This document shows positions 1,566 through 43,426 of a stretch of 43,588 nucleotides of DNA, one piece after another. This DNA comes from a virus. The stretch covers positions 1 to 43,588 of IMG/VR virus record IMGVR_UViG_3300047548_000671; one strand, given 5' to 3'. The stretch's first letter is position 1. The number at the start of each line of letters is the position of its first letter. A model generated the notes under the pieces. It was not told where the DNA came from, ran no database searches, and saw nothing but the letters and a program-made list of their open reading frames with translations. The position numbers and the translations under genes were made by a program.

Positions 1566-3479
1566 TTAATCTAAATCACTTATTATATTGTCTTCACTCA
1601 AAAGATCAGATTGCTCAAACAATTGTACTTTTCTTTGTTGATTTTTACTGAACATTTTGTTAAGAGAGTTTTTATTCTTAAGGTACTCTCCCATAGTGCT
1701 TTCAAGAGCTAGTGGGCTGCCTCCTTTGTAGTTAGGCTTCATACTATTCTCTCCTGCTTCAGCGTCTTTATTGTATGCATCTGAGCCAATAGGATCTCGA
1801 CCAAAAGCAGATCTATCAGTACCTATGTTAGAAGTTACAGACTTAGGTCTACCAGGTTTATTCTCATCATAGCCATAAGGAACGTTTAAGACTGAATCTT
1901 CCTTACCTCCATATAGACTAGCTATCTGATGAGGTGTGCCGTATGCTTGGCCTGATTCTGCAGGATCATTACCTTCTTCGGCTATTTGTTTATACCTAAA
2001 GTCTCTTTTCTTGTCTTCGATAACCATATCTTCAAGCTCTGCATATTGATCTTCAGAGAAGTGGAATATCTTGTCATAGATAAAGTCTCTAGGTAAGAGT
2101 GATCCTTCCATTGCTTGTTTAGCCAAGTCAATCTTCTCTTTGAAGAGTGCAATCCTTTCTTGATCATAAATGATAGATGGATTAGTCAATGAAAGGCTAA
2201 AGTTAGCAGCAGATTCATTGGTATAACCATGAGCATACAAGTGAACTAATGCAATCTTAGTCAACTCACTAATGATAATCCTCTGTAGTCTTTCGATAGT
2301 TCTAGCAAAACGAATATCTTCAGCAGCAAGTGTAGCTTTACCAGTCAGGTCTTTTTCATAGCCCATGAAAGCCTTAGGTATCTTAAGGGCGGCAAACAAC
2401 TTCTCACGGAAGTATGCTACGTCTTCGATACCATTATAATCAAGGCCTTTCGCTGTATCTATTTTAGTAGAAGTATCGTTACCTCTTACAGGTATAAAGA
2501 AGTCCTCAAGTAGATTCTGCTGGTTGTATTTAAGGTTATAGTTACCAGTATTTGGATCGATAAGAGGAGTCTTCTTCATCTTATTGATCATCTTTTGCAT
2601 GTAGTTATCAACCTCTTGTGGAGGAATTGCGCCTACATTTACGTAGAAAATACGTCTTTCTGGAGCTCTTACAATACGATGAATTAACATTGCATCTTCA
2701 ATCAATACATACTGCTTAAACAACTTACGAGCAGGCTCTAAGTAAGATCTACCATAAGGAAGATAGTTAACATCACCAGTCAATCTGAAGTGCGCCATCT
2801 CAAAGTTATCAAACCAGATGCCAGAATCGTTATTCTGTAAAGAGCTATAACCAGTTGATGATGCTAGGGCTGCATTTGGATCATACTTAAACCTAACCTC
2901 TTGTGGGTTTTCAGGGTTATATCCTTCTTGACGAACTATATTGTAGGCCGAGAATGGAATAACATTATAAACACCATAGTTTTCAGCGATCTCTAATTTG
3001 AGGTAGAAGTCGCCGTACTTAGCCATGTTACGAACCCAAGACCAAAGATTAAATTCAATATTAAGTACAGAATAAAATAAGTTATAGAGGAGCTTTTGAA
3101 TGTTTTCGTCAGAAGACCTAATTTGTAATACTTCACCTTGTTCATTTTTAAGTGTACACTCATCTGCTACAATATCCAATGCTGAACAACAAATAGCATC
3201 GGTATCCATAGCATCGTAGTCTGCATATATTTGAACCCTTGCTGATTGATAGTTCTGTGCTAAGTTAAGGTTTACACCATATGCTGTTGAGGTAGTATAT
3301 ACCTTATTGAACCTATCAATAAGAGAGTTCGTTTGAATTACACCAGACCTTTGAATAGTGTCTGGATCCATTACTTTAAGCATGTCTCCACCTTCATTAC
3401 GAATGATGACGTCAGTAGAAAACAAACGTCTTAAAGTAGAGAATAGATTATTTTGTCTTTGTGGTTGCTGTTCTGCCAT
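1566..3479 (-). CDS. gp20: Portal protein, T4 gp20-like
   Basis: At 637 residues this is somewhat longer than T4 gp20 (about 520). The portal is the dodecameric ring at the capsid vertex through which terminase pumps DNA and to which the neck attaches. The sequence shows the portal core pattern: an Asp/Ala-rich segment (YADYDAMDTDAICCSALDI, about residues 86-104), a WSWVRNMAKYGDFYLKLEI stretch (about 145-163), and a C-terminal helical part with FREKLFAALKIPKAFMGYE (about 362-380). After about residue 540 the tail is Gly/Asn/Asp-rich and looks disordered, which accounts for the extra length. It starts 9 bases after the terminase stop. The terminase-portal order is as expected, although T4 has the sheath and tube genes between them. 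Confidence 0.93.
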   Translation of the reverse strand: MAEQQPQRQNNLFSTLRRLFSTDVIIRNEGGDMLKVMDPDTIQRSGVIQTNSLIDRFNKVYTTSTAYGVNLNLAQNYQSARVQIYADYDAMDTDAICCSALDIVADECTLKNEQGEVLQIRSSDENIQKLLYNLFYSVLNIEFNLWSWVRNMAKYGDFYLKLEIAENYGVYNVIPFSAYNIVRQEGYNPENPQEVRFKYDPNAALASSTGYSSLQNNDSGIWFDNFEMAHFRLTGDVNYLPYGRSYLEPARKLFKQYVLIEDAMLIHRIVRAPERRIFYVNVGAIPPQEVDNYMQKMINKMKKTPLIDPNTGNYNLKYNQQNLLEDFFIPVRGNDTSTKIDTAKGLDYNGIEDVAYFREKLFAALKIPKAFMGYEKDLTGKATLAAEDIRFARTIERLQRIIISELTKIALVHLYAHGYTNESAANFSLSLTNPSIIYDQERIALFKEKIDLAKQAMEGSLLPRDFIYDKIFHFSEDQYAELEDMVIEDKKRDFRYKQIAEEGNDPAESGQAYGTPHQIASLYGGKEDSVLNVPYGYDENKPGRPKSVTSNIGTDRSAFGRDPIGSDAYNKDAEAGENSMKPNYKGGSPLALESTMGEYLKNKNSLNKMFSKNQQRKVQLFEQSDLLSEDNIISDLD

Positions 3480-3488
3480 ATTATATAA

Positions 3489-5084
3489 TTATAAAAGCCA
3501 AGTTAAATTTTGTGTTTCATCACCCATTGGGGTAGTAACATTCATAGCCCAAGGATTTTGATTGTAGTGAGTATTCGCATTATATGAAATACTCGTATCC
3601 TGTGTTTTAGTGAAACTGTTTAATGCTGCATAAGTCAAATTCTCTGCGGTCTTTCTGTATCTAAGACTAGTTTCTCTTAAGTACATTCCGATAGCAAATG
3701 CCATAACTAGATCGTCATTGTAACTCTGCATTGCTTGAGCTTTACCATTCTTCCAGATAAATACTCTAAGCTCTTCTAACAGTCTTATTGACCTTATAGT
3801 AACAACCTTGTTCTCAACAAAGTCTCTCATCTTCTCTATAACCAAAGGCCTAGTCTTTTCTGTTGTACTAAATCCTGGAACTAAACCATCAGGTTTATTA
3901 TAACTATCTATATATTTTGAAAACTCAGTGTTTTGACTATGTTTATAACTATAGTGCACATTATTATAGCCTCTTTCTAATACTGTTTGAATTACGTCCC
4001 AACCTATATTAGCGTTCTCAATCACGACTAAAGCATTATTATATTCTGCTGCAGTACTAAGGATAATATTAGCATAGTCTCTAGTATCAACTTGAGATTT
4101 ATATTCTGCCACTTGGGTTAATGTTTCTATGTCTATAACATGGAAGCCAGAATAGTCATTACCATCACCACGCGCTACGTCAGCTATTAAGGCATAATAT
4201 TTTTGTGGATCCGTATATTCCCATATCCACAATGCCTTATCTAAACCACGCCTTTCTATTGGCTCTGAGATCATATTCTCTTCATACCAAGTAAGTATAT
4301 CTGGTTCGATAACAGTATTACCTGAGGTGGCAAAGTCACAATCACACTCTTGAGCGGCATTTCTTTTACCTAGTACTTTGTCTTGATCATCTCTCCAGTC
4401 TTGATTACGTTCAGGATGAACTGTCCAAGGAAGTGATATCGGTAAGAACTTGTTCTTTTGTTCTTGAGCAGAAGTATAAGTTTTGTGAAACCAGTTACCC
4501 ACACCATTAGGAGTAGACAAGGCTATACAACCACCACCTGTTGCCAATGTTTGTTGGGCGGCTGTAAAGATAGTCTCAATATTATCAATGAACGCAGCCT
4601 CATCTATAACTAGTAGAGATACAGCTTCAGAACGACCAGCATCACCAGCGGCTGATACCGCTTTTACTTGTGAACCATTAGTAAGTCTTAGACTTAACCT
4701 GTTGTCTTCTGATGCAGGTATTTTTAACCATGTAGGTAAGTTCTGGTAAGCAAACCTTACTTTAGTTACCATGTTCTTGGCAGTATCTTGCTTAGTTGCA
4801 ATAACAAGAACGTTCTTGTCTTTGTTAAACAGCATCAACCATAATGAGTATGCAGATACTAATGTAGAGATACCTAACTGCCTTGACTTATTTATGATTG
4901 AGTAGTCATTCTTTTGGAATAGTCTTAAAACCTTTTCTTGGAATGGATAGAGATCAAATAACTGTCTACCTCTCTGAGGATGCTGGATCATGTAATACTT
5001 CTTCATAAAGTACACAGGATCTGTTGCGCATTTTATAAACTCCTCTCTTATCCTCTCTTTTATATTTACTTGAGCTTCTGGCAT
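3489..5084 (-). CDS. terL: Terminase large subunit (ATPase-nuclease DNA packaging motor)
   Basis: This 531-residue protein is a T4 gp17-type packaging motor that translocates DNA into the prohead and cuts concatemers. The ATPase domain shows an adenine-binding-type Q segment (YPFQEKVL, 46-53), Walker A variant SRQLGIST (67-74), Walker B plus catalytic Glu LLVIDEAAF (157-165) and coupling motif STPNG (190-194). The RNase H-fold nuclease domain shows its acidic residues in ADVARGDGNDYSGF (301-314), VVIENANIG (353-361, Glu356) and YNDDLVMA (455-462). All catalytic positions are intact. The ATG overlaps the upstream stop codon by one base (TAATG), which suggests translational coupling. No small terminase subunit is obvious nearby. 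Confidence 0.97.
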   Translation of the reverse strand: MPEAQVNIKERIREEFIKCATDPVYFMKKYYMIQHPQRGRQLFDLYPFQEKVLRLFQKNDYSIINKSRQLGISTLVSAYSLWLMLFNKDKNVLVIATKQDTAKNMVTKVRFAYQNLPTWLKIPASEDNRLSLRLTNGSQVKAVSAAGDAGRSEAVSLLVIDEAAFIDNIETIFTAAQQTLATGGGCIALSTPNGVGNWFHKTYTSAQEQKNKFLPISLPWTVHPERNQDWRDDQDKVLGKRNAAQECDCDFATSGNTVIEPDILTWYEENMISEPIERRGLDKALWIWEYTDPQKYYALIADVARGDGNDYSGFHVIDIETLTQVAEYKSQVDTRDYANIILSTAAEYNNALVVIENANIGWDVIQTVLERGYNNVHYSYKHSQNTEFSKYIDSYNKPDGLVPGFSTTEKTRPLVIEKMRDFVENKVVTIRSIRLLEELRVFIWKNGKAQAMQSYNDDLVMAFAIGMYLRETSLRYRKTAENLTYAALNSFTKTQDTSISYNANTHYNQNPWAMNVTTPMGDETQNLTWLL

Positions 5085-6098: not shown

Positions 6099-7697
6099 TT
6101 AGAATAAATTAATCTTTATAACTGGCTTGTCTATACCACCAGTTGCATTTCTTATATTAACATCAGCTCTTTTTAGTCCTAGTTCTGAATCCTCTAGTGG
6201 TATTCTAATAGTAGCTATTTTTGTAGACTTGCTTGGGTACTTAACGAATATACCACTAGGAGTGCCTAATAGTTTATTTGTCTTTGCTGCTGAATTTATA
6301 TTAATGATTTTAATATCACCACCTGGTATTTCACGTATATAATAGTAGCCGTAATCTATAGCTGAGCCTAATAGTTTTTTTACTAAATCTATATCACCAT
6401 TAGTTTGAACAAAATCAGTATCAGACCCTTTTTGATTGATATAGTTATTTAATCCTGCAACTATCTTTTTAGGATCTACACCTAACACTTCTAATATCCT
6501 TTTAACATCTTCATTTGAGTCAAATGATTCTTTATCAAATACGATCTTAGTCTTATCTTTATTGTATATGATTCCAGGTATTATTCCACCATTGTATATT
6601 CCAGAACCAGATACATTCTTTATTGATAAGTAGTACGGCTTATTTCCGTAGTTGATTATAATGTCAGATATCTTTTCGCCTCTATTTTTAGGACCGTTGA
6701 AGTTTAAAGGCCTTTTTGTATCCGTTTCTCCAGCCGCTACTATATCCTCTGCTGATAATTGAGATGCGTCTATTCCTAATTCCTCAATTATTTTTGCTAC
6801 CATAGGGTCTTGTATATCTTCATTTTCTAGACCAGCTACAGCTTTAATTCTACCAACTAAATCTTTTTCAAACTTGCTACCTAGATTAGCGCTTGCTCCA
6901 CCACTTAAAATAAGAGATGCTTCTCCTTCTGGTGTATCAAATACAAACATGCTGAATTTGCTGCTATCATTAGGTCCAGACTTTGGTCCATATACCTTTA
7001 GCTTTTTTGGCTTTAGTACCTTATCAATAATAGTTTTAAACTCATCTGCACTCATCTTTTCTTTATTGGCTATCCTATTAGGATTAGACTGAGGTTCAAA
7101 TTTCTTAGGGTACTTCTTTATGATAGCATTTACAGCATATCTATTTGCAGCAGTTTTAGATGCTTCATGTATAGAGATAATACCCTCTAATACTTTAGAC
7201 TCAGTCAACTGCTCACCACCTTCTTCTGCTTCAGGTGCTGATGTTTCTGCTGGTGGAGTTGGTCCTGCTTCTTCATCAGGTCCTTCTTGGTCTCTAGTAC
7301 CTTGTTCAGCTCCATCAGGTCCTTTAGTCTTTAAAGGACTACCAAACCTTAGGAGTCTTGATATAGCAATCATGCACCTTTCTTTCTCACCGATAGTCAT
7401 TAGATAGTATTTCTTGCCTTGTACAGTTGCTTCATAAGCTTTGCCCATGAACTGCAAGAAGAATATCTGACCATTATGTAAGAGGATTTTAAATGTAGTT
7501 GGTTTTGGAGCAACTACAAATATGCCTGTTATGTATTCTTTGAATGATGGAGTCATTAAGTATTCAAGAGTTGTATTAAGTCCTGCATACTTCTTTAATA
7601 TAAACTCCATAGGATCTTCCTCAAAGGTAGACTGATCTACTGGAGATAGTTCTTGTAATAAGATTGACTTTAATATATCTTGATTTGACACCGGCAT
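6099..7697 (-). CDS. Large unknown protein with candidate PD-(D/E)XK nuclease domain
   Basis: This 532-residue protein has three visible parts. An N-terminal domain (1-120) opens with a hydrophobic-acidic helix (ILKSILLQELSP). A Pro/Glu/Gly-rich acidic linker spans about 122-165. A C-terminal region (about 180-532) follows. Within the last part, GSKFEKDL (Glu277), SDIIINYG (Asp345) and YYLSIKN (Lys360) are spaced like the E...D...(x)xK active site of PD-(D/E)XK nucleases, with Ser in place of the usual Glu. That would make it a metal-dependent DNA endonuclease, but it is inferred from a pattern only. The linker end carries LTESKVLEGIISIHEASK, which looks like prohead-protease-type sites. It starts 8 bases after the stop of the gene before. 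Confidence 0.85.
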   Translation of the reverse strand: MPVSNQDILKSILLQELSPVDQSTFEEDPMEFILKKYAGLNTTLEYLMTPSFKEYITGIFVVAPKPTTFKILLHNGQIFFLQFMGKAYEATVQGKKYYLMTIGEKERCMIAISRLLRFGSPLKTKGPDGAEQGTRDQEGPDEEAGPTPPAETSAPEAEEGGEQLTESKVLEGIISIHEASKTAANRYAVNAIIKKYPKKFEPQSNPNRIANKEKMSADEFKTIIDKVLKPKKLKVYGPKSGPNDSSKFSMFVFDTPEGEASLILSGGASANLGSKFEKDLVGRIKAVAGLENEDIQDPMVAKIIEELGIDASQLSAEDIVAAGETDTKRPLNFNGPKNRGEKISDIIINYGNKPYYLSIKNVSGSGIYNGGIIPGIIYNKDKTKIVFDKESFDSNEDVKRILEVLGVDPKKIVAGLNNYINQKGSDTDFVQTNGDIDLVKKLLGSAIDYGYYYIREIPGGDIKIININSAAKTNKLLGTPSGIFVKYPSKSTKIATIRIPLEDSELGLKRADVNIRNATGGIDKPVIKINLF

Positions 7698-7705
7698 TTA
7701 TTATT

Positions 7706-8428
7706 TTACTTTTTAGTCTTGAGAAGATCTTCCATCATAGATTGGAGAGTCATATCATCTACTGGCTCTTCTTCATTACCTACAGGAAGTTCATCCATAC
7801 TATGTTCATCGTTATGATATTCATGGTAGTTCTTTGAAGCCTGATTGATGTAGTTCTCTGCATTAGTAATATGATCTTGAATCCAAGCCGGGATATCTTT
7901 CTCATCTTGGCCTAACATATTCATCAATTGACTTGCTGAACTTACAATAGACTTAAGGCTATTATGTGCCATTGATACTTCATGGTCTTGACTTTCAAAT
8001 ATGTCAGGGAATTCACCTGACATATCATACTTACATTTAGCATATCCAGCTTTATATCCTTGATCGTAAGCCGATTTTAGATCTGGTCTTATTTGATCTG
8101 AGTTCATATCTGCTTCTGTTTTCATCACAGGAACTTGACCTTCTTCTGATGCCATTTTATAGTAGCGATCAAACATATCGTAGTCTTTTTCATCCCATTC
8201 TCTTTCTGGTTTTTTAGACAGATAGAAATCAGGACCCATTATTTGAGCCATGATTTTGTGTTTTGGAGTATCACCCTCTTTAATGTCTTTCTTTTTACGA
8301 AGCGCTGCAAAGTCTGCACCAGTAATTTTACCTTTAGGTTTAGCTATGTCAAGTTTCTTTTGTCCGCCTTTAAGCTCTTCGTCTATTTCTTTCATTAAAA
8401 GAGCTTTGTAGAATGAGATACTATTCAT
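7706..8428 (-). CDS. Conserved T4-like phage protein with C-terminal helical 'WIQDHITNAENYI' domain
   Basis: I place the start at the ATG at 8428, 1 base after the upstream stop. An upstream GTG in frame would overlap the neighbour by 65 bases. The 240-residue product begins MNSISFYKALLMKEIDEELK, an amphipathic helix rich in Leu and Glu. A charged middle follows, then a Gly-Tyr-Ala turn (YDQGYKAGYAKC). The C-terminal helical domain contains LMNMLGQDEKDIPAWIQDHI (about 170-190) and then AENYINQASKNYHEYH. The last domain recurs, in my recollection, in several small proteins of marine T4-like phages. Its function is unknown. A possible IFE|S processing site separates the middle from the helical domain. 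Confidence 0.85.
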   Translation of the reverse strand: MNSISFYKALLMKEIDEELKGGQKKLDIAKPKGKITGADFAALRKKKDIKEGDTPKHKIMAQIMGPDFYLSKKPEREWDEKDYDMFDRYYKMASEEGQVPVMKTEADMNSDQIRPDLKSAYDQGYKAGYAKCKYDMSGEFPDIFESQDHEVSMAHNSLKSIVSSASQLMNMLGQDEKDIPAWIQDHITNAENYINQASKNYHEYHNDEHSMDELPVGNEEEPVDDMTLQSMMEDLLKTKK

Positions 8429-8429
8429 C

Positions 8430-8717
8430 TTATTTTTTCTTTTTAGATTTGCTTGCTTTTTTCCATAGACTCTTGTCAGCTTTTCTTGCTCCACCTTTGC
8501 CTGTTACAAATGAGTTTACTCTGCCCATTGCCCATTGGTGTTGACCAACTCCAGGACGGTGTCCTGTTTTCCAAGCCGCCAAACCTTTAGCATAGACGCT
8601 TTTAAGTATAGTTTTAGATATACCAGTAGATTTGGCTTTGTTTGCCAATGCCTTTTCTACTTCAGCATCGTACTCAAGAATAAGTATCTGCCTTAATATA
8701 TTTAATTTATTTATCAT
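8430..8717 (-). CDS. Small basic phage/virus protein ('GHRPGVGQHQWAMGRVNSF' family), unknown
   Basis: This is a 95-residue, strongly basic protein. The N-terminus (MINKLNILRQILILE) is an amphipathic tag-like helix. The core reads SGISKTILKSVYAKGLAAW and then TGHRPGVGQHQWAMGRVNSF, ending in a Lys/Ser tail. I recognise the core as a conserved domain of unknown function that appears as a small module in phages and some large eukaryotic viruses. I am not certain of its Pfam number. It overlaps the upstream gene by 4 bases (ATGA-type junction) in the run of small genes. Confidence 0.85.
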   Translation of the reverse strand: MINKLNILRQILILEYDAEVEKALANKAKSTGISKTILKSVYAKGLAAWKTGHRPGVGQHQWAMGRVNSFVTGKGGARKADKSLWKKASKSKKKK

Positions 8718-8989
8718 TTCTTTTTCTTTTTATCTAGTTTCTTTTTAACTATCTCTCTAGTCCTGTCCATTTTCCTTGCGTAAGCAGGATCATCTTTACG
8801 ATTAAAATTAGCTTGTTGGTTTAATGAGCCAGTTATTTTGCTCATATTACTGTTTCTGGTCCTTATTAACCAATTAGCTAACTTCTCTGCTGACAATTCT
8901 TTGAATTTTCCTTTTGCATCTGGTGCATTAGAATGATGAAACTTAAGTCTCTTTTCAACTAGCTGTTGTAATAGTTCTTGTAGTTTCAT
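8714..8989 (-). CDS. Small basic phage protein ('FHHSNAPDAKGKF...ANWLIRTRN' family), unknown
   Basis: This is a 91-residue basic protein. It has an N-terminal helix (MKLQELLQQLVEKR), then FHHSNAPDAKGKFKELSAEK, LANWLIRTRNSN, a SLNQQANFNRKDDPAYA segment and a lysine-rich end. The core is a widespread small domain of unknown function that I recall from phages and giant viruses. It may bind nucleic acid, judged from charge only. One base of its ATG is shared with the upstream stop at 8989, and it overlaps the downstream gene by 4 bases. Confidence 0.85.
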   Translation of the reverse strand: MKLQELLQQLVEKRLKFHHSNAPDAKGKFKELSAEKLANWLIRTRNSNMSKITGSLNQQANFNRKDDPAYARKMDRTREIVKKKLDKKKKK

Positions 8990-9519
8990 CAGTTTTCTTT
9001 TTTACCAAACCTTTTTTCGTAAGCTGATGTTGCCGCACTCTTCTTAGTCTTATATTTTTTAGTCTTAGCCTTGTCTGCATAATCAGCTTCCCATTTACCA
9101 TAGGCAGAAGGATCATCAGACTTTAGCTTCTTTACTCTATTGATCTCTTTTTTCATTGCCGCTGCATCTTTGGTTAAGTATGCAGGATTGACTTTACCTT
9201 TTTTCTTTGCTTCACTTACCCTAACACAGTTAGGAACCATTTTACTTCCTTTCTTTTTCATACCCTGCTTCTCGTATCCATCCCAACAAGCTTCTTCAAG
9301 AGGTTTTAAGTCTAACTCATTTCTTATTGAATCAAACTCTTCGTACTCCATGCCTAAAAGCTCCTCTTGCACATCTTCTTTAGACATTAGTTCATGGTAA
9401 GGGAACACCGCTTTAGATACTAATTCTGGGTTTTGATCATATAGATCTAGAATAGGTTGAATTGTCATCATTCCCATTTCTGAGATAACCTCGTTTAATA
9501 TGTCTTTAAGCTTAATCAT
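8989..9519 (-). CDS. Two-module small phage protein with N-terminal tag, unknown
   Basis: This 176-residue protein starts with MIKLKDILNEVISE, the clearest example of the shared N-terminal helix in this cluster. Two small modules follow. One is ACWDGYEKQGMKKKGSKMVP (77-96) plus NCV. The other is a Lys/Ala-rich helical module beginning NPAYLTKDAAAMKKEI (111 onwards) with a K..DDPSAYGKWEADY segment. Both modules are familiar from marine phage proteins and have no known function. The tripeptides LEE|A (74-77) and VSE|A (101-104) fall exactly at the two module borders. It overlaps the upstream gene by 4 bases. Confidence 0.85.
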   Translation of the reverse strand: MIKLKDILNEVISEMGMMTIQPILDLYDQNPELVSKAVFPYHELMSKEDVQEELLGMEYEEFDSIRNELDLKPLEEACWDGYEKQGMKKKGSKMVPNCVRVSEAKKKGKVNPAYLTKDAAAMKKEINRVKKLKSDDPSAYGKWEADYADKAKTKKYKTKKSAATSAYEKRFGKKEN

Positions 9520-9833
9520 TTATTTCTAATTATTAGTTCACCTAATACTTCTAGTCTACCAACCTCTCTTTGAAATTCTGTCTGAGTCATATTCAGAGAT
9601 ATGCTTTTATATGTTTTGCCGTATTCTTTCTTAGCCTCTTCAATATTAAAATCACCTTGTTTAGCCTTCTTATAATAAGGAAGCTTAACTATAAAGTGAT
9701 TATAAGTAAGCATAGACAATCCACCCTTTTCTTTTGCATTGTTTGCAATCTTCTCTGCACCTTTCATTCTAGTTTCTGCGAACTCTATGAAAGACTCTTT
9801 TATTTCTTTTAAAATATCTAGAAGCTTTGTCAT
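9516..9833 (-). CDS. Small phage protein with N-terminal tag, unknown
   Basis: This 105-residue protein begins MTKLLDILKEIKES, nearly the same N-terminal pattern as the next gene. The rest is conserved in style with marine phage proteins: GGLSMLTYNHFIVKLPYYKKA (about 46-66) and a C-terminal QTEFQREVGRLEVLGELIIR helix. No catalytic motif is visible. The stop overlaps the next ATG by 4 bases. A sense-oriented GATATTTAT motif lies 6 bases upstream of the ATG. Confidence 0.83.
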   Translation of the reverse strand: MTKLLDILKEIKESFIEFAETRMKGAEKIANNAKEKGGLSMLTYNHFIVKLPYYKKAKQGDFNIEEAKKEYGKTYKSISLNMTQTEFQREVGRLEVLGELIIRNK

Positions 9834-9839
9834 ATGAAT

Positions 9840-9848
9840 ATAAATATC
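9840..9848 (-). promoter_or_regulatory. Candidate late promoter motif GATATTTAT
   Basis: The sense strand reads GATATTTATATTCATATG, with only 6 bases between the motif and the ATG at 9833. If it is a promoter with T4-like geometry, the transcript would be almost leaderless. Confidence 0.45.
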
Positions 9849-10469
9849 TTATTTTTCACTTTGATTTATATCATAATAAAAAGAATCAGAGTCTTCAGAC
9901 ACCCATTTATCAGATATAGATTCTACATTTAGTAGTTCAGTATCTACCTTAATCATCTTTGGATCAATAGGGAAGTCCTTTGTTATCCAATTAGAATCCT
10001 TCCAATAGATTCTATTATTAGGCATACACAGTAGATATCCATCGTCGGCTACTAAAATATGGCCACATTTATAGTCTGATGGTTCATTTGAATACGTGTT
10101 ATTTTGCCAATCTATAGTCATTAGATATGTGGCCCAGACCATAGTTTTGTCTCTAAGTATGACTTTACATCTTTTGTCTTTTAGAAAGTCATATTTTATA
10201 ATAGCTGCATCTGAACCGAAACAATCCCATAATTGTTTAAAATAGTAAGGTATGTCTTTAGTGGGAGGTTTTAAATATATTTCAGACATAGGAACTCTAG
10301 ATCTAAGCATCCCATAATCTGTCATGACATGAAAAGTTAGTATCTTTGCATCTACAGATTGAACTCCAAAGGCGTAACAATTATGAAATATGTTATCGTC
10401 TTTTTTGTCTTTTGTAAAATAAGACTGTTTAACCAAGCACTTAAATGCCTCTATATTATAATTTAACAT
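9849..10469 (-). CDS. Conserved phage protein of the 'QLWDCF...TIDW...PNNRIYW' family, unknown
   Basis: This is a 206-residue soluble protein, probably beta-rich. Recognisable segments are CYAFGVQSVDAKILTFHVM (about 31-49), a KQLWDCFGSDAAIIKYDFL block (about 78-96), YLMTIDWQNNT and LCMPNNRIYWKDS. I recall the same chain of motifs in conserved hypothetical proteins of T4-like marine phages. I know of no assigned function. It is followed immediately by the motif at 9840-9848 and starts 7 bases after the stop of the gene before. Confidence 0.82.
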   Translation of the reverse strand: MLNYNIEAFKCLVKQSYFTKDKKDDNIFHNCYAFGVQSVDAKILTFHVMTDYGMLRSRVPMSEIYLKPPTKDIPYYFKQLWDCFGSDAAIIKYDFLKDKRCKVILRDKTMVWATYLMTIDWQNNTYSNEPSDYKCGHILVADDGYLLCMPNNRIYWKDSNWITKDFPIDPKMIKVDTELLNVESISDKWVSEDSDSFYYDINQSEK

Positions 10470-10476
10470 ATTTTAT

Positions 10477-11199
10477 TTACCACTTTCTACATGACCAATA
10501 CCTGGCTTTCCATCTTGGTCCTGGATTAGTGTCGCAATGATGCCTGGCTCTAAAACTTTTTCTTCTTTTAGGATTAGACTTTTTGATCTTCATGTTAGGG
10601 TCTCCGAAGTTTACCTTAACAACATTTCCTTTATCGTTCTTTACATATACCTTAAACTTTTTAACATCGCCTCTCATAGGCTTACCTAAAGGTACTTTAC
10701 GACCTTTATATTCTGCTTCTTGTAGAGAGTTTATATTCTCTCTTATATATTGAGCTAGACATTGTGGGCAGAATTCGCCTTCATGTAATTCTTCTATCTC
10801 TTTTATACCGGCTATATGTCTTCCTTCATACTTATCTTGAAGATAGTTAACCATTTTAGCATTCATATTAAAATCAGGTTCTAAAGGTTTATCATCTGGC
10901 TCACTATCTATAGTCTGAGCTATCATTTTCATGAATCCATTTTCTACAGTATCATCTACAATAGCAGACATTTCATCGTCAATGTCAAGACGGTCTAACC
11001 AGGTCTTTGTTTTTTTAACATCAGGTTTTGAAACTGCCGCTTTAATAAAATCAAATGTAGTTCTTGCAGCTTCTAAGCCAGGCACCAATCCCACTACAGC
11101 ATCTAAAGCAACTCCGGCAACCTTCTCACCTTTTTGCTTTAAAGAAATAGCTTTTATAGTCTTTTTTAAATCGCCGTATGTTTTAAGTTCGATAGCCAT
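10477..11199 (-). CDS. Two-domain conserved phage protein with CxxC motif and basic C-terminal module, unknown
   Basis: This is a 240-residue protein. The N-terminal domain (1-130) has a hydrophobic Gly/Val stretch (VALDAVVGLVPGLEAA, 30-45), then LDRLDIDDEMSAIVDDTVE (68-86). A CPQC motif at 144-147 could be half of a metal site. The C-terminal module (163-240) starts at YKGRKVPLGKPMRGD and continues through VYVKNDKGNVVKVNFGDPNM. It ends in a very basic Cys/His/Trp-rich tail (RARHHC...YWSCRKW). That module occurs, as I recall, in other phages and large viruses as a separate domain of unknown function. The border between the domains contains LQE|A (159-162). The start overlaps the upstream stop (TAATG). 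Confidence 0.85.
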   Translation of the reverse strand: MAIELKTYGDLKKTIKAISLKQKGEKVAGVALDAVVGLVPGLEAARTTFDFIKAAVSKPDVKKTKTWLDRLDIDDEMSAIVDDTVENGFMKMIAQTIDSEPDDKPLEPDFNMNAKMVNYLQDKYEGRHIAGIKEIEELHEGEFCPQCLAQYIRENINSLQEAEYKGRKVPLGKPMRGDVKKFKVYVKNDKGNVVKVNFGDPNMKIKKSNPKRRKSFRARHHCDTNPGPRWKARYWSCRKW

Positions 11200-12260
11200 T
11201 ATGCTAGACTTTGAGTTCTTTTATTGAATATATCAGTAGATGCTTTTATAGCAGGTCCTACTGATCCTTTTCCTAACTTATCGATTATTGAATTTACTAA
11301 TGCTACAATTCCTTTAACCTCATTCACATCTATACCTTTTACTGTAGGTATTTTAGTTGCGAGGTCTTTAAGATAACGTTGAATTTCTGGGATGCTGTCT
11401 ACTACATTTTCTGCTTCAGCAATTTGCTCTTGCCCTCCTACGATAGTCTCATAATCATTCATAGAAAGAGTCATTCCAGATTGGGATAATGCAATGGCTT
11501 TCTCTGCTACATTGTGAAGATCCATATCTGTCTTGGCGTCTTCTCTAGCATATTCTAATAGTCTAATGAAAAGAGGAACATCTAAAGATACTTTATCAGT
11601 AGGATTTATCCTCTCTTCTAACTTATCTTTTTTTTTATCGCTTTTTTCGTCTTCTACTGTCTCGACGTTTTTCTTACTCTTCTCGATTCTTTCCATCTTA
11701 GACATAAGATCATCGATCTGTGTAGCAATCTTAGCGATATGTTCTTTGTGCTGAGAAGCATTCTTAGGATCTTCTTTAGCCATATCAAGATGCTCTTTAC
11801 GCTTCTTTTCAAGATGGTCGATAGTCTTTTTCAACTTGTCACCAACCTTACCTTTTTTCTCTTCTAGAGCTTGAACTTCTTTAGTATATGCATCATATAC
11901 CTCAGCAGCAATCCTTTGGGCCTCTGATTCATCATGAACTACGCTGTGAACATCATCTTGCATAAGATTAAGAGGTTGAATACCTTCTAGAGGATTTAAT
12001 TCCATTACCAAACCTGAAGCATCTAGATTATCTATAGCTTTTCTAACTACATACATCTTAGTAGGATTATAGTCTTCTTTTTTAACCTTTTTAGGAAGTC
12101 CTTTATGTTTAGTTGATGCAAAGTCTTTTACATCTTTTGGATCCATTGATTTAGCCATTTCTTTTGCTTTTTTTGATACTTTAGATGGTTCTATATCTCC
12201 TTTTTGAAGAGCTCGAACAATACCCATTAATTTTTGTTGTTGCTTAGATGCTGAGGGCAT
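11199..12260 (-). CDS. DUF3008-type N-terminus fused to coiled coil and conserved phage helical domain
   Basis: I start it at the ATG at 12260 (product MPSASKQQQKLMG..., 353 residues). The in-frame TTG 18 bases upstream overlaps the previous stop. The first about 60 residues match DUF3008: SKQQQKLMGIVRALQKG, then a Lys-rich helix and DVKDFASTKHKGLPKKV. A long charged coiled coil follows (about 120-210). Next comes a helical domain, VSLDVPLFIRLLEYAREDAK and MDLHNVAEKAIALSQSG, which recurs in marine phage proteins. The C-terminus after IAE|A is another small helical part. The function of all three parts is unknown. A GATATTTAT motif lies 17 bases upstream of the chosen start. Confidence 0.85.
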   Translation of the reverse strand: MPSASKQQQKLMGIVRALQKGDIEPSKVSKKAKEMAKSMDPKDVKDFASTKHKGLPKKVKKEDYNPTKMYVVRKAIDNLDASGLVMELNPLEGIQPLNLMQDDVHSVVHDESEAQRIAAEVYDAYTKEVQALEEKKGKVGDKLKKTIDHLEKKRKEHLDMAKEDPKNASQHKEHIAKIATQIDDLMSKMERIEKSKKNVETVEDEKSDKKKDKLEERINPTDKVSLDVPLFIRLLEYAREDAKTDMDLHNVAEKAIALSQSGMTLSMNDYETIVGGQEQIAEAENVVDSIPEIQRYLKDLATKIPTVKGIDVNEVKGIVALVNSIIDKLGKGSVGPAIKASTDIFNKRTQSLA

Positions 12261-12274
12261 ACTAAATAGATTTA

Positions 12275-12853
12275 TCAATAAATATCTGTCTTCCTAAACT
12301 CTTCTATCTTTTTTTTCAACTCGCTATATATTTGAGTCTTGTCACCACCTTGCCAACTCTCAATATCTCCTTGCTCAGTTACGAATGTGTCTTTTTCCTC
12401 AAGCCATGAATCTAATGCCTGCTCAAATTCTTCTAGGCTAGCATTCTTATTCATATTAAGAATGTTCTTCTCATACTGTTCGTACTTACCTTCAACCTTG
12501 AGTTTAGCTTCCATATCAATAACACAGTTTAAACAAGTTTTATGTATTGAGTACATCTTCTTATTTAGCTCGTCTGTCTTCATGGGTTTATGGCAACTAG
12601 GACAAGTAAGAGGCATGTTAATTAAGTGCTTAAACTTGTCTAGCTTTGTAATAGACTGTTTAATACCATTCTTAATGGTCCACTTCTTTCCATCCTGCTC
12701 CCAAACGTCTCCTTCTTTATGCTCTTCTACTTTACTTTCCCAACCTCCTAATACCTGAGTTCTATCACCAGTTTTGCCGGTGATAATGTTTCTCATCCTT
12801 TGAACATCGCTCTTCTTGAACTCTTTCTTTAACGTAGACTGTTTTGGTGTCAT
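12275..12853 (-). CDS. Zinc-ribbon conserved phage protein, unknown
   Basis: This 192-residue protein has a WEQDGKKWTIKNGIKQ segment (about 51-66) followed by a four-Cys zinc-ribbon pattern, CPSC (about 84-87) and CLNC (about 107-110). An acidic helical C-terminus comes next. I recall the same order in hypothetical proteins of T4-like marine phages. Zinc binding is likely. A nucleic-acid or protein-binding role would be a guess. The stop (TGA, 12275-12277) reads through the neighbouring ATATTTAT motif. The start lies 2 bases after the previous stop. Confidence 0.82.
   Translation of the reverse strand: MTPKQSTLKKEFKKSDVQRMRNIITGKTGDRTQVLGGWESKVEEHKEGDVWEQDGKKWTIKNGIKQSITKLDKFKHLINMPLTCPSCHKPMKTDELNKKMYSIHKTCLNCVIDMEAKLKVEGKYEQYEKNILNMNKNASLEEFEQALDSWLEEKDTFVTEQGDIESWQGGDKTQIYSELKKKIEEFRKTDIY
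12278..12286 (-). promoter_or_regulatory. Candidate late promoter motif GATATTTAT
   Basis: The sense strand reads CAGATATTTATTGA. The motif is embedded in the last codons of the upstream gene and lies 17 bases before the ATG at 12260. Confidence 0.45.
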
Positions 12854-12855
12854 AA

Positions 12856-13749
12856 CTATTGTATGTTAAGTTTATTTAATATGTCTTTTGTCTTATCTAT
12901 ATCTTTATGCATTATTGCAATACCTCCTAATGCTTTCCATGGAGCTAGGTTTGGCCAATAGTCATCTATTAGCATAGACCTTTTAGGGTCCATAGTCATC
13001 ATGGAATGTTTATCTCCTGTCTGAGCAAATAAGATTCTTTTGGGTTTAGGGTTTAAGTTAGCCTCTACCCACATCCTCTTTCCTTCTTTAGCAAACTCAA
13101 ATTTACTTGGGCTAGTTAGAATATATGGCTTATATTTACCTATGATAGACCATAGTTCTTGGCCACCTGGCATCCAGTTCATCTTAGACCAGAAGTCAAT
13201 CCCGGCTTTGTTTACAGCAACTTCGAATGCTTTAGAACCTTTCTGAGTATAGTATTCTTTTGGAAGCTCACCATAGAAGTGTTCGAATCTAGAATCAAAA
13301 TCACACAACACACCATCCATATCACAATAGATCTGTACATCTCCAGACTGTTCTACCTCATATATCTGTTTAAGACTAGGAAGTAGTGCCTCATAAATAA
13401 GATCATTAGTCTTACCATAGTCTCTCATTATCATACCTGCAAAAGCATTGGCTTGATTCTCTATACCAGAACCAGTTTCTCCTGCTTTAGCATGTAGTTG
13501 GCCTAGTTCATTTTGTTTATGATGAACTAATTCATGGCATAGTGTTCTAAATATATCGGCCAAATTTCGGTTCCCTACATAAACGTCTAAGTGCTTTTTA
13601 GTAGGATCATACTGGCCAAAACTTCTTTTATCAGTAGCCCATTCACGATCATATATAAACTTTATTGTAGGCAGATTATTTATATCAAGCCGTATCTTAC
13701 AATACTGTACGAAGTCTTTAGTAATGTCCTGTTTTTGTTGTTCTGTCAT
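12856..13749 (-). CDS. Metallopeptidase-HAD (5'(3')-nucleotidase-like) fusion
   Basis: I start at the ATG at 13749 (297 residues), because the upstream in-frame GTG would overlap the previous gene by 38 bases. Residues 1-120 look like a small zinc metallopeptidase: CHELVHHKQ (71-79, HExxH) and a downstream ENQANAFAG helix (97-105) that may give the third ligand. Residues 138-297 are a HAD-superfamily phosphatase of the 5'(3')-deoxyribonucleotidase type: DMDGVLCDFD (143-152, nucleophile and acid Asp), LTSPS (211-215, motif II) and LIDDYWPN (260-267, motif IV). A nucleotidase would turn dNMP into nucleoside. The linker has LIYE|A and VEQS, and the HAD part sits beside nucleotidyltransferase domains in the upstream gene. 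Confidence 0.9.
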   Translation of the reverse strand: MTEQQKQDITKDFVQYCKIRLDINNLPTIKFIYDREWATDKRSFGQYDPTKKHLDVYVGNRNLADIFRTLCHELVHHKQNELGQLHAKAGETGSGIENQANAFAGMIMRDYGKTNDLIYEALLPSLKQIYEVEQSGDVQIYCDMDGVLCDFDSRFEHFYGELPKEYYTQKGSKAFEVAVNKAGIDFWSKMNWMPGGQELWSIIGKYKPYILTSPSKFEFAKEGKRMWVEANLNPKPKRILFAQTGDKHSMMTMDPKRSMLIDDYWPNLAPWKALGGIAIMHKDIDKTKDILNKLNIQ

Positions 13750-13753
13750 TTTA

Positions 13754-16228
13754 TTATCTTTGAACAGCTCTATTTGCTGCGGTAAATCCACCTCTATTTA
13801 CTAATTTGATAGGACCAGAAGGATCTGATATCACGTAGCCTTCACCACCTGGTTGATCTCCTATTGAAGCTTTTACTCCAAGGTCTTGAGAGTCTAATTG
13901 TGCTATTATCGAGTTCTTCAGATTGTTTATAGCTTTGACTGCATTAAACATACTGTCTATAGTAGAACTGTTTTGTTTAGAGTACTCTATCATCTTAGTC
14001 TTTTTTACAGAGCTAATGCTGGGCTCATTGCTTATAAAGTTTATGAATTCATCAGCACTGAGAGAATCCATATCGCTAGCCTTTGAGTTAGTAAACTTGT
14101 AGATAACATCTGCATAGTCAGACATTTTTTCTGCACTTAGCTTACTTCTATCTAATAGCTTATCTACAGATTTTGCACTAGATATACTAGACTTAGCTTG
14201 ACTCATTAAGTTACTGTCAAGCTTTATTCCACCTTTAGGAAATATAGGTGAGAAAACCATTAGGCCTCCTTCAGGATCAAAGTTATAGTCTTTTGCAGTC
14301 TTAACCGATTGTTCTTTACCGTCTAAAGATTGGTAAACATGTGGTATTACTCCGACTTCGCTGTTTGATATCTGAGTACCTAACTCACTATCAACAGGTA
14401 TTTTGTATGTAGTTATGTTTGGTTTAAAAACATATTCACCATCCACTATTTCAGGTCTATCTTGATATAACAAATCACCTTTGAAATATCCAGTCAATCC
14501 TTTAGGCCAAGACCTTTTAAACACTTCGTATGCTTTTGCCATACTTTTTGCAAATGTAAAGTCAGGTTTATTTCCAGACTTTTCAGCAGACTTTATGGCT
14601 CTATTCTTAAACATATCTTCTACCTCTTTTGAGCTTTTAGCCTTGCCATCATATCCTTTGGCTATAAAACCACCTTTGTCTGTAAGAATAAAATTACCAT
14701 TTTCATCTACACCGAATACTACGGCTGGTGATCCGTCCCATTTTACAGAGGTAGTTGATGGATCTTTTACTGCCTTACTTATGATATCTAAAGCTCTTTT
14801 AGCTCCAGAAGATCCTTCCCAATATATCAAGTCTTCAGGATGTTGAATCCTTGCTGATGCTGCTTCTAATAATATAATCAGCTCTTTTATAGACTCATTT
14901 AGTCCTTTTTTTTTAGGCAGTTCTAAATTGTCTTTTGCCAGGTCTTCTTTAGCCTGTTTAACCCACTCTTCATATTCTGGCTTATCTTTTATCGCTTTGA
15001 TTATAGCTTCAACGCTAACTAGATCTTCAGCTTTTGCTTCTGGTCCAATTAGTCTAGTTGCTATTTCATCAGGGTTCTTACTGACAGTCTTATTAGTCGC
15101 CCTATCTACAAGTCCATTTAGATATGACCATTTAAGTCCTTGAGCTTTAGCAATACTGGCAAGTAGGAGATGCTTATGAACACCTTTGTAAGGACTATCT
15201 TTTGCTCCTCCTTGCATAGAGAACTTCATGAAGTCTACATCATCATTAAACATAAAGTCAGTCTGTACAAATCCTTTCTCAGGATCACCAGCTATCGGTG
15301 TCTTTACATGTACATTAGTGCCAGACTTTTTGATGTCGGCCTTCTCTATCCCTTTAGCAATAAGCTTTGTGATTAGAGCATTTTGATCTACCTTGTTCTT
15401 ATCTACTCCAAGGTCTAGGTCACCACTGTCAGCCTTTTTGCCCGTAGTTCCAAGCATATTGTCTTTGAGTGGCAGTTCAGATTTGTCTTCAAGCCAATCT
15501 ATAGTTGGTTCTATGTCTGCCAAATTTATCCTTTGAGTACCATCAAATACATTACCTCCTTCAAACAATATGCTACGAATCAACGTAGACATTACTGCCC
15601 TTTCTTCTATAGTCTCATATATAGGTTTAGCTTCTTTTACTTGGCCTGTAAACTTTTGATATAGCATAGAATGTATTCTTTCATCATACCAACCAAAGAT
15701 GTCAACGAATTGATCTTTTGTAAGGTCTGGATTGCTTAATGCTTTTCTTATATTTGTGCCACTCATTTCACCTACACCGTCTATGTTATAAGAAACGTGT
15801 GGAGCTACAATCAGATAGCCGTGTTTTAAGTATGAGTCCATAGGCTGACCTTCTTCGTACTTTTTAAAGTAGGATGGGCTACCGTCTTTTTTTGGCTTCA
15901 TCTGGAATCTAGGATCATCTTGCATATCCTTTTCTCCTACCATAAAAACAACTGCAGTATTTTCAGGATCAAACCTAGATGTAATCTCCTCTGCATTATA
16001 AGGATTCTTTACCTGTACTATTTGTGAGTCTATGTTGTACTTATTAGCGACTGCTTTCTTTTCATCAAAGTCTAAAGGACTTTTAGGAGGGTCTACTTTA
16101 TTAGACGTGGCTATAAAAGTATTATCCTTACCAAATTTACTTTGCAGCCATTGAAATGCGTCAAAATGGTGTCTACCCATAGGTTGAAATCTGCCAGGGT
16201 ATATTGCTACTATATTCTTATTTTCCAT
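13754..16228 (-). CDS. Three-domain protein: NMNAT-like, pol-beta-type nucleotidyltransferase and KxDG ligase-like domain
   Basis: This is an 824-residue protein. Domain 1 (1-195) is a cytidylyltransferase/NMNAT fold: YPGRFQPMGRHHF (10-22), in which HxGH is altered to GRHH, and MSGTNIRKAL (155-164), the ISSTxxR motif. Domain 2 (about 225-440) has a minimal-nucleotidyltransferase signature, TTGKKADSGDLDLGVD (261-276), plus the third carboxylate in VQTDFMF (321-327). Domain 3 (about 460-824) has VKWDGSPAVVFG (495-506), a KxDG motif like the covalent AMP site of DNA/RNA ligases, and GYFKGDLLYQD (580-590). It resembles the phage family I recall as DUF6267. The domain borders carry LFE|GG (222-226) and LLE|AA (453-457). 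All three activities handle nucleotides, but substrates are unknown. Confidence 0.88.
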   Translation of the reverse strand: MENKNIVAIYPGRFQPMGRHHFDAFQWLQSKFGKDNTFIATSNKVDPPKSPLDFDEKKAVANKYNIDSQIVQVKNPYNAEEITSRFDPENTAVVFMVGEKDMQDDPRFQMKPKKDGSPSYFKKYEEGQPMDSYLKHGYLIVAPHVSYNIDGVGEMSGTNIRKALSNPDLTKDQFVDIFGWYDERIHSMLYQKFTGQVKEAKPIYETIEERAVMSTLIRSILFEGGNVFDGTQRINLADIEPTIDWLEDKSELPLKDNMLGTTGKKADSGDLDLGVDKNKVDQNALITKLIAKGIEKADIKKSGTNVHVKTPIAGDPEKGFVQTDFMFNDDVDFMKFSMQGGAKDSPYKGVHKHLLLASIAKAQGLKWSYLNGLVDRATNKTVSKNPDEIATRLIGPEAKAEDLVSVEAIIKAIKDKPEYEEWVKQAKEDLAKDNLELPKKKGLNESIKELIILLEAASARIQHPEDLIYWEGSSGAKRALDIISKAVKDPSTTSVKWDGSPAVVFGVDENGNFILTDKGGFIAKGYDGKAKSSKEVEDMFKNRAIKSAEKSGNKPDFTFAKSMAKAYEVFKRSWPKGLTGYFKGDLLYQDRPEIVDGEYVFKPNITTYKIPVDSELGTQISNSEVGVIPHVYQSLDGKEQSVKTAKDYNFDPEGGLMVFSPIFPKGGIKLDSNLMSQAKSSISSAKSVDKLLDRSKLSAEKMSDYADVIYKFTNSKASDMDSLSADEFINFISNEPSISSVKKTKMIEYSKQNSSTIDSMFNAVKAINNLKNSIIAQLDSQDLGVKASIGDQPGGEGYVISDPSGPIKLVNRGGFTAANRAVQR

Positions 16229-37582: not shown

Positions 37583-38038
37583 ATGAATAAATGGTTGTAT
37601 TTCGATACTCTAGGAACTACTAGAGAGTTTAATTCAATAGAAGACTTTCCTGAAGGTGCAATTGGATTTATATATAAGATTGTGAATCTTGTCAATGGCA
37701 AATTCTATATAGGTAGAAAGGTCTTGTATAATAATAACAATAAAGCATTAACCAAGAAAGAGATAGCGGAATGGAACAAACCTGGGCGCGTCCCACGCAA
37801 GAAAAAGGTGGTTAAAGAATCTGATTGGTTGTCATATCATGGAAGTAATAAACTTATCAATCAAGAAAGGAAAGAACATACGGACGATATCTTTAGTAGA
37901 GAGATCTTAAGAGTATGCTATACTAAAAAGCAGTTGACTTATTGGGAAGTGTACTATCAAATGCACTATGACGTTTTAAGGGTAGATTCATACAATGATA
38001 ATATCCAAGGTAGGTTCTATCGAAAGGATGTAGAATAA
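37583..38038 (+). CDS. GIY-YIG-like nuclease domain protein at the end of the tail operon
   Basis: This is a 151-residue protein. GFIYKIVNLVNGKFYIGRKV (about 28-47) fits the GIY-YIG core (IYK and YIGRK). A basic middle (KKKVVKESDWLSYHGSN) and a YWEVYYQMHYDVL helix follow, in which the Glu could be the metal ligand. It is the last plus-strand gene, with no separate promoter and a composition like its neighbours. I recall similar proteins conserved at this place in T4-like marine phages, so it may be a resident nuclease rather than a mobile homing enzyme. Confidence 0.78.
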   Translation: MNKWLYFDTLGTTREFNSIEDFPEGAIGFIYKIVNLVNGKFYIGRKVLYNNNNKALTKKEIAEWNKPGRVPRKKKVVKESDWLSYHGSNKLINQERKEHTDDIFSREILRVCYTKKQLTYWEVYYQMHYDVLRVDSYNDNIQGRFYRKDVE

Positions 38039-38092: not shown

Positions 38093-38671
38093 TTAGGACT
38101 TAGCCCAATTTATTAAGCTTGGTTGTACTTGGAAGTTCTTACCTCCTACCCTAAGGTAACCATCATTATTTAGAATATCGTCTTTGGTAAACATAGCTAG
38201 AGTACCTCCAGTATTAGGATGCCCCACTCTTATTACTTCTTCACCAGCATCATTTGTTCCAGTATCTACCACTAGTCTAGCCTTATTTCCTTGTTGATCT
38301 ACAGTATTCCAGTCAAAGGATTGAAATTGGCCTCCAGCTTCTTCAAGGTTATCATAGTCACTGAATACTTGATCATACATATCAATACCTGTCATAAGGA
38401 AGTTCTTGATATCTTCATCGTCAAATCCGTCTTGTCTAAGCGCATCGATAGCACTTTTCAATTGCTGACCTGCAAGACCCCAAGCTCTACCATAAGTTTC
38501 ATTTTCGTCATCTTCATCTGATACTAATGAAGGAAATGGATTTGGGCTATCATCGGTATACATTGACGCCTCAGCTTCTTCCATAGGTTTAATATCTCTG
38601 TATCCACCAATAGATTCGTTAAGTAAAGGATTGTTCCTGATGAACTTGTTTAAATTAAAATTATCTGCCAT
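38093..38671 (-). CDS. Acidic phage protein with 'FNLNKFIRNNPLLNES' N-terminus, unknown
   Basis: This is a 192-residue acidic protein. The N-terminal 21 residues (NFNLNKFIRNNPLLNESIGG) resemble the short capsid-targeting-like start found in marine T4-like phages and end in LNE|S. A helical middle, LAGQQLKSAIDALRQDGFDD (about 70-89), follows. The C-terminal beta part (RLVVDTGTNDAGEEVIRVGH) is introduced by an LEE|AGG sequence at about 111-116. A GATATTTAT motif precedes it, so it may be expressed late although it lies among accessory genes. Its function is unknown. Confidence 0.82.
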   Translation of the reverse strand: MADNFNLNKFIRNNPLLNESIGGYRDIKPMEEAEASMYTDDSPNPFPSLVSDEDDENETYGRAWGLAGQQLKSAIDALRQDGFDDEDIKNFLMTGIDMYDQVFSDYDNLEEAGGQFQSFDWNTVDQQGNKARLVVDTGTNDAGEEVIRVGHPNTGGTLAMFTKDDILNNDGYLRVGGKNFQVQPSLINWAKS

Positions 38672-43355: not shown

Positions 43356-43426
43356 AAAATAAAAATGACCCAAAAAAACAAAGGAGCTCTAACCTTCCTA
43401 AGTTTAAATGGGCCAATAAGTTTTCA

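What the first reader, a model, noticed from the sequence alone, without database searches (positions are those of the whole stretch)
6099..16228. Possible set of capsid-targeted cargo proteins with shared N-terminal tag
Several unrelated proteins start with a very similar short amphipathic helix: MIKLKDILNE (8989-9519), MTKLLDILKE (9516-9833), MKLQELLQQLVE (8714-8989), MINKLNILRQILILE (8430-8717), a looser MNSISFYKALLMKE (7706-8428) and DILKSILLQE (6099-7697). T4 internal proteins (IPI-III, Alt) carry a short N-terminal capsid-targeting sequence that is removed by the gp21 prohead protease after an (L/I)-x-E site. The cluster lies beside terminase and portal. I infer that it encodes proteins packed in the head and injected with the DNA, an arsenal whose members are mostly uncharacterised.
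Basis: partly seen in the sequence, partly recalled or inferred. Interest (0 to 1): 0.8.

Follow-up and report, generated by a model that had tools for sequence, protein, structure and literature searches.

The report
Shared address tag on phage-head cargo
Uncultured relatives of phage T4 put a nearly identical ten-residue address label on more than a hundred unrelated proteins, most likely so that these are loaded into the virus head, have the label cut off and are injected into the host; only a handful of such proteins were known from T4.

Summary
Six adjacent genes (6099-9833, minus strand) encode unrelated proteins that begin with a short helix ending in [LI]xE. In the window alone this is not significant; comparative evidence carries it. 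In relatives a near-identical tag, M-I-K-L-x-D-I-L-x-E, starts 358 distinct bodies in 101 unrelated families. N-terminal enrichment is 18% against 4% internal or shuffled; phages without T4-like heads show none. Synonymous codons vary, so the peptide is selected. All 11 relatives tested encode a gp21-type protease, with catalytic H, S and D conserved and a T4-like LLIE start. Their capsid protein has LxE at T4's cleavage column in 21/21. A score trained on the six tags ranks T4 gp22, gp24 and gp21 1st, 3rd and 6th of 48. In cyanophage S-SM1, a cytidylyltransferase found in virions by mass spectrometry (PMC3037559) starts MKKFSAFLNE|A. New features: a carrier with swappable payloads joined at a second tag, and internal tags that would split a polyprotein. 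Most likely a large T4-type capsid-targeting system; packaging and cleavage are untested. Payload functions are mostly unknown.

The parts
9804..9833 (-). N-terminal tag MTKLLDILKE of the 105-aa cargo protein
   Evidence: Tag Glu invariant in 45/45 orthologues; length varies just after it
9516..9833 (-). 105-aa tagged cargo, all-helical, no known family
   Evidence: AF2 pLDDT 93; no PDB match at E<=0.001; no Pfam match for a 97%-identical orthologue
9490..9519 (-). N-terminal tag MIKLKDILNE
   Evidence: 22/23 orthologues keep [LIVMF]xE
8989..9519 (-). 176-aa tagged cargo with the CWxGYxxxGxKxKxxxxVPNC module
   Evidence: PHROG matches; module shared with a P-HM1 cyanophage protein annotated cytitidyltransferase
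8954..8989 (-). N-terminal tag MKLQELLQQLVE
   Evidence: An orthologue starts MRLIDILTE in front of the same body (L016); 12/12 keep LxE
8714..8989 (-). 91-aa basic tagged cargo (pI 10.6)
8673..8717 (-). N-terminal tag MINKLNILRQILILE
   Evidence: 16/16 orthologues keep LxE
8430..8717 (-). 95-aa basic tagged cargo, DUF5824 (pI 10.6)
   Evidence: PF19141 E=3e-17; matches the C-terminus of phrog_3041 cytidyltransferase
8387..8428 (-). N-terminal tag MNSISFYKALLMKE (looser)
   Evidence: 66/83 related N-termini keep LxE
7706..8428 (-). 240-aa acidic tagged cargo, unknown family
   Evidence: no PHROG or Pfam match; pI 4.9
7650..7697 (-). N-terminal tag MPVSNQDILKSILLQE of the carrier-payload protein
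   Evidence: 39/43 keep LxE
7347..7616 (-). Conserved carrier domain (residues 28-117)
   Evidence: First 135 residues identical between homologues with unrelated payloads; folded in AF2
7173..7208 (-). Internal second tag and predicted cleavage site QLTE|SKVLEGII in a disordered linker (residues 118-178)
   Evidence: L164 and E166 invariant; pLDDT below 50 in 118-178; payload switch lies just after it
6102..7160 (-). Variable C-terminal payload (residues 180-532)
   Evidence: One of at least 4 unrelated payload families; PHROG_8438; homologues in Synechococcus phages
13754..16228 (-). 824-aa predicted polyprotein: NadM-like, GGNVF nucleotidyltransferase-like, DUF6267
   Evidence: PF19782; architecture
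15560..15589 (-). Internal tag and predicted cleavage site STLIRSILFE|GGNVF
   Evidence: Free-standing homologues start MIKLKDILLE|GGNLF, MIKLISIVKQILME|GGNVF or M|GGNVF
14864..14899 (-). Second internal tag-like site NESIKELIILLE|AASARI before DUF6267
   Evidence: Conserved in homologues
3489..5084 (-). Large terminase (gp17-like)
   Evidence: PHROG_2 E=3.7e-49
1566..3479 (-). Portal protein (gp20-like)
   Evidence: PHROG_213 E=6.4e-67
38093..38671 (-). Protein with another N-terminal tag type, MADNFNLNKFIRNNPLLNE
   Evidence: Same type as immuto MADNFNLRSFLTEN and MENFDLKKFLVEN proteins

Best explanation
The tags are capsid-targeting propeptides. Each cargo protein is made with an N-terminal amphipathic helix that docks it on the prohead core or scaffold. 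After assembly a gp21-type serine protease (Peptidase_S77) cuts after the Glu of [LI]xE, freeing the mature protein inside the head. It is packed with the DNA and enters the host with it. Any body that acquires the tag becomes cargo, so a fast-changing set of proteins shares one label. Internal copies of the tag split larger precursors: the carrier from its exchangeable payload, and NadM from the nucleotidyltransferase and DUF6267 in the 824-aa polyprotein. Shown: shared tag, unrelated bodies, protease in relatives, capsid cleavage site, synonymous freedom, payload swaps. Inferred: docking, cleavage, packaging, injection, host-directed action.
For: Tag on 358 distinct bodies in 101 unrelated families. 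Degenerate DNA pattern for MIKLxDILxE gives at least 120 stretches, with 147/149 matches at starts of ORFs of 45 aa or more; codon-permuted control gives 3. 142/781 families against 4% expected. Control phages at background. S77 protease in 11/11 relatives and 17/34 tagged contig fragments. Protease H85, S140, D168 and the LLI of the N-terminus conserved with T4 gp21. Capsid protein E65 column is E in 21/21, and 18/20 capsid proteins start with the tag pattern. T4 substrates score above other T4 ORFs (p=0.013). S-SM1 virion cytidylyltransferase starts MKKFSAFLNE|A (PMC3037559). P1 is Glu in 138/158 in loci not chosen for it. Exact E|GGN junction both after N-terminal tags and inside the polyprotein.
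Against: No virion proteomics of this lineage. Residues after the Glu are mostly I, A, V, M, whereas the T4 sites seen here have mostly A or S. T4 IPI-III themselves score low with the trained matrix. Some tagged genes lie far from the head block. Half of the tagged contigs show no S77 gene; they are fragments, and a portal search of these was uninformative. Some orthologues lack the tag (M|GGNVF in immuto). The protease gene is not in the window, which ends just before its expected place.
Confidence: 0.82

Rival explanations
1. The tags address proteins to the prohead, but the cargo acts only in head assembly or DNA condensation and is never injected or host-directed.
For: Two window cargos are small and very basic (pI 10.6), like DNA-binding core proteins; scaffold-like C-terminal motifs recur.
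Against: Tagged bodies include ADP-ribosyltransferase (ART-PolyVal, 1.3e-27 and 2.1e-10), zeta-type kinases, NUDIX, exonuclease and cell-wall hydrolase, which would be odd assembly factors; cargo families differ from one relative to the next.
Confidence: 0.12
2. The helix is a general amphipathic N-terminus with another role, such as membrane attachment, dimerisation or stability, and its place beside head genes is incidental.
For: Some tagged genes lie far from the head block; the helix is short and simple.
Against: Near-strict Glu at the end (138/158), the tag on the capsid protein itself, the protease match, T4 substrates scoring high, and absence in control phages.
Confidence: 0.05
3. The repeat is a DNA element, for example a recombination or regulatory sequence at gene starts, and the peptide is a by-product.
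For: The core GAC-ATA is over-used compared with the same genes' bodies (ATA at codon 7: 213/231 against 46%; GAC at codon 6: 58% against 19%), which points to DNA-level descent or exchange.
Against: 265 distinct DNA sequences encode 134 peptides, third positions vary elsewhere, and no upstream consensus is seen beyond A-richness. Peptide selection and recombination are compatible.
Confidence: 0.03

Closest known systems
T4 capsid-targeting sequence with gp21 prohead protease (IPI-III, Alt, gp22, gp24)
   Same: About 10-residue N-terminal propeptide ending in [LI]xE, S77 protease, gp23-type capsid with LxE site, cargo unrelated in body.
   Different: T4 has a handful of such proteins; here 101 families in one sampling. 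Sequence MIKLxDILxE rather than MKTYQEFIAE. Internal tags, polyprotein and carrier-payload forms were not found described in the papers searched.
Ejection proteins of giant phages phiKZ, 201phi2-1 and SPN3US
   Same: Many head proteins cut after Glu by a gp21-related protease and packaged with DNA (PMC9026906).
   Different: phiKZ uses an S/A-x-E site; no shared short tag on so many unrelated bodies was found described in the passages read.
Polyvalent proteins (Iyer et al. 2017, PMC5512222)
   Same: Predicted virion-packaged effectors with ART, kinase and other domains; two tagged proteins match ART-PolyVal.
   Different: No shared N-terminal tag was found in the passages read; domains here are mostly separate small proteins.
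Polymorphic toxins (architecture recalled, not tested as a family)
   Same: Conserved N-terminal carrier with exchangeable, unrelated C-terminal payload, swapped at a fixed junction.
   Different: Delivery would be by the phage head, with cleavage by a prohead protease; toxicity untested, no immunity gene sought.

Membership tests
T4-type capsid-targeting (CTS/gp21) system | Short N-terminal propeptide ending in [LI]xE on several unrelated proteins | tested here: met
T4-type capsid-targeting (CTS/gp21) system | S77 (gp21) prohead protease with catalytic residues | tested here: met
   In relatives, not in the window itself: 11/11; H85, S140, D168 invariant
T4-type capsid-targeting (CTS/gp21) system | gp23-type capsid protein with LxE cleavage site at the T4 column | tested here: met
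   In relatives: PF07068; Glu in 21/21
T4-type capsid-targeting (CTS/gp21) system | Sequence similarity of the tag to known T4 gp21 sites | tested here: inconclusive
   gp22, gp24, gp21 rank 1, 3, 6 of 48, p=0.013; IPI-III score low
T4-type capsid-targeting (CTS/gp21) system | Cargo present in virions with the propeptide removed | not testable with these tools
   Indirect only: S-SM1 GC190 cytidylyltransferase, tag MKKFSAFLNE|A, detected in virions (PMC3037559)
Polymorphic toxin | Near-identical N-terminal region with unrelated C-terminal domains | tested here: met
   135/135 identical residues, DNA 94-96% over about 530 bp, then none
Polymorphic toxin | Toxic activity and cognate immunity protein | not tested
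   Payload has no Pfam or PDB match
PD-(D/E)xK nuclease (window payload) | Nuclease core fold | tested here: not met
   Best PDB matches at E>0.07, none a nuclease of this fold; motif-like D345...SxK360 only

The most novel reading that the evidence does not exclude
A whole lineage of uncultured T4-like phages uses one mobile, roughly ten-residue peptide as a universal head-loading label. It has spread by recombination onto more than a hundred unrelated proteins, and is also used inside proteins to make self-dividing precursors and carriers with swappable payloads: a modular, protease-activated injected arsenal.
Probability: 0.6. Interest if true: 0.86.

Novelty: new variant of a known kind. 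Interest (0 to 1): 0.77.

Why it matters
If true, the first residues of a gene tell which proteins of uncultured T4-like phages are head cargo. That turns hundreds of 'hypothetical proteins' into predicted injected proteins, among them ADP-ribosyltransferases, kinases and NUDIX enzymes, and marks a promising place to look for new takeover and anti-defence functions. The carrier with swappable payloads suggests that phages diversify their injected proteins by recombination at a fixed junction. The prediction can be tested directly in the cultured relative immuto.

Tried and rejected
PD-(D/E)xK nuclease for the window payload: suggested by motif, not supported by fold search or PDB profile search. 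Fold of the 105-aa cargo: confident model, no PDB match. Significance from the window alone: not reached with a strict pattern. Portal_T4 search in tagged contigs lacking S77: nothing rang, uninformative. DNA-element explanation: not favoured, but a GAC-ATA skew remains. Search of papers for the tag letters gave no relevant paper among those listed. The Baltic Flavobacterium phage paper does not mention immuto and gives no virion mass spectrometry.
Full report
What the window is. The window is a 43,588-base fragment of an uncultured virus, 34% G+C. Its portal is 56% identical to that of Flavobacterium phage immuto, a cultured 160-kb phage, and 47% to that of Microcystis phage Mel-JY01. It ends, at position 1, just after the portal and one further head-block gene.

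The observation. They sit on unrelated bodies beside terminase and portal. In the window alone only two of the six match a strict amphipathic pattern, which is not significant (2/14, p=0.12). The case therefore rests on relatives.

Enrichment. I gathered relatives by the portal, by the 105-aa cargo and by the 824-aa protein, called genes and clustered them. A pattern H..HH.E (H = hydrophobic) occurs in the first 22 residues of 142 of 781 families (18%), against 4.0% of internal windows and 4.4% of shuffled N-termini. In three larger genomes, a matrix trained on the six window tags finds tags more often near the portal than elsewhere: 7/40 vs 10/206, 4/32 vs 5/189 and 4/35 vs 3/193 (p=0.010, 0.027 and 0.012). 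Four phages of Bacteroidota without T4-type heads show only background (12/277) and no strict tag, against 106/930 and 17 in this lineage.

A transferable tag. Of 149 matches, 147 start an open frame of 45 aa or more. A codon-permuted control gave three stretches. With all loci pooled, 358 distinct bodies in 101 families unrelated at E<1e-3 carry the tag; in L148 several consecutive genes have it. The 290 tag copies use 265 DNA sequences for 134 peptides, so the peptide is what is kept. The core codons GAC-ATA are over-used compared with the same genes' bodies, as expected if tags also spread by recombination; copies are not independent, so the p-values overstate this. In loci not chosen by the tag, the last position is Glu in 138 of 158.

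The protease and its known substrates. Peptidase_S77 is found in 11 of 11 relatives. In the relatives closest to the window it follows the portal in the order portal, three genes, protease, scaffold, capsid. Against T4 gp21, H85, S140 and D168 are conserved, and so is the LLI of the MNEPQLLIE start, which a review notes as a possible self-cleavage site. The capsid protein has Glu at the T4 E65 column in 21/21, and mostly starts with a tag itself, such as MANLVQSLLTE|S. T4 gp21 cuts after [LI]xE (PMC9026906). The window-trained matrix ranks T4 gp22 (MLKEQLIAE|A), gp24 (MAKINELLRE|S) and gp21 at 1, 3 and 6 of 48 T4 ORFs; nine gp21 substrates score above the rest (p=0.013), although the internal proteins MKTYQEFIAE score low.

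Independent virion evidence. Sullivan et al. found a putative cytidylyltransferase, T4-GC190, in purified S-SM1 cyanophage virions, together with gp21 (PMC3037559). That protein (SSM1_190) starts MKKFSAFLNE|A, and was the only gene in the two S-SM1 stretches (about 96 kb) that matched the tag pattern. Modules of the window's cluster are found in the same cyanophage neighbourhood: DUF6267, and a homologue of the window payload next to a cytidyltransferase that starts MKNFFQFLSE|A. This supports packaging by analogy, not directly.

Second tag types. Other N-termini end the same way: RMQxLAGIxxE (22 proteins) and FDLKKFLVEN. The motif [RK]..LAGI is about eight times more frequent per protein in N-termini than per 40-residue internal window, and also forms the C-terminus of the scaffold, RWQKLAGIK. 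A cargo that copies the scaffold's C-terminal motif could bind the same site; this is inference.

Carrier and payload. The 532-aa window protein has a tag, a conserved carrier (residues 28-117), a disordered linker with QLTE|SKVLEGII, and a C-terminal payload. Several homologues have N-terminal regions identical over 135 residues and payloads without detectable similarity. Their DNA is 94-96% identical for about 530 bp and then unrelated, the switch lying just after the second tag. At least four payload families with 7-14 members exist, plus singletons, and carriers also occur alone. The window payload has no PDB match; I looked for a nuclease fold and did not find it. Related uncharacterised proteins occur in Synechococcus phages.

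Polyprotein. In 13754-16228 the sequence STLIRSILFE|GGNVF precedes a nucleotidyltransferase-like domain (my reading of its conserved residues, not a database match). Free-standing homologues start MIKLKDILLE|GGNLF, MIKLMDLLKE|GGKLF, MIKLISIVKQILME|GGNVF, or simply M|GGNVF in immuto. The same Glu-Gly junction behind an N-terminal tag and inside the long protein is good evidence that the internal copy is a processing site.

Cargo functions. Pfam places tagged proteins in ART-PolyVal, zeta-toxin-like kinases, NUDIX, RNase_T exonuclease and cell-wall hydrolase; most families tested have no match. T4 Alt, also packaged, is an ADP-ribosyltransferase (PMC5512222).

Limits. No virion of this lineage has been examined, as far as I found. 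Residues after the Glu are often I, V or M. Half of the tagged contigs searched lack S77, but they are fragments. Some tagged genes lie far from the head block. Gene starts were assigned by a simple caller. Injection and action on the host are inferred.

Verdict. The system works like, and meets the sequence-testable defining features of, T4 capsid targeting; its scale, internal tags and swappable payloads make it a new variant.

Noticed in passing
window 38093-38671; L082 22632-23932: A second N-terminal tag type (M..F[DN]L+KFL..N) on several proteins of this lineage, away from the main cluster in the window.
   Followed up: partly
L082 16676-17140; L002 4160-4534 and 16481-17503: Motif RMQxLAGI at the N-terminus of cargo and at the C-terminus of the scaffold (RWQKLAGIK); cargo may imitate the scaffold.
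   Followed up: partly
tagged genes in L002-L341: Codons 6-7 of the tag are GAC-ATA far more often than the genes' own codon usage predicts; cause unknown, perhaps recombination between tags.
   Followed up: partly
L082 (NC_055915) 17262-17576 and neighbours: The immuto record names a tagged cargo 'tRNA(Ile2) C34 agmatinyltransferase'; a window-lineage orthologue has no Pfam match, so the product name looks unfounded.
   Followed up: no
L298 7021-7677 and two further genes: Three tagged proteins with leucine-rich-repeat-like sequence in one locus, apparently a local expansion of one cargo family.
   Followed up: no
L246, L248, L316, L329: Tagged proteins with a 'YHFT' motif near the body start that look like ADP-ribosyltransferases by eye, but have no Pfam match.
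   Followed up: partly
window 42600-43373 and 37583-38038: Two proteins whose starts (VYKLIDPVTNKIHYIGKT, IYKIVNLVNGKFYIGRK) look like GIY-YIG endonucleases by eye.
   Followed up: no
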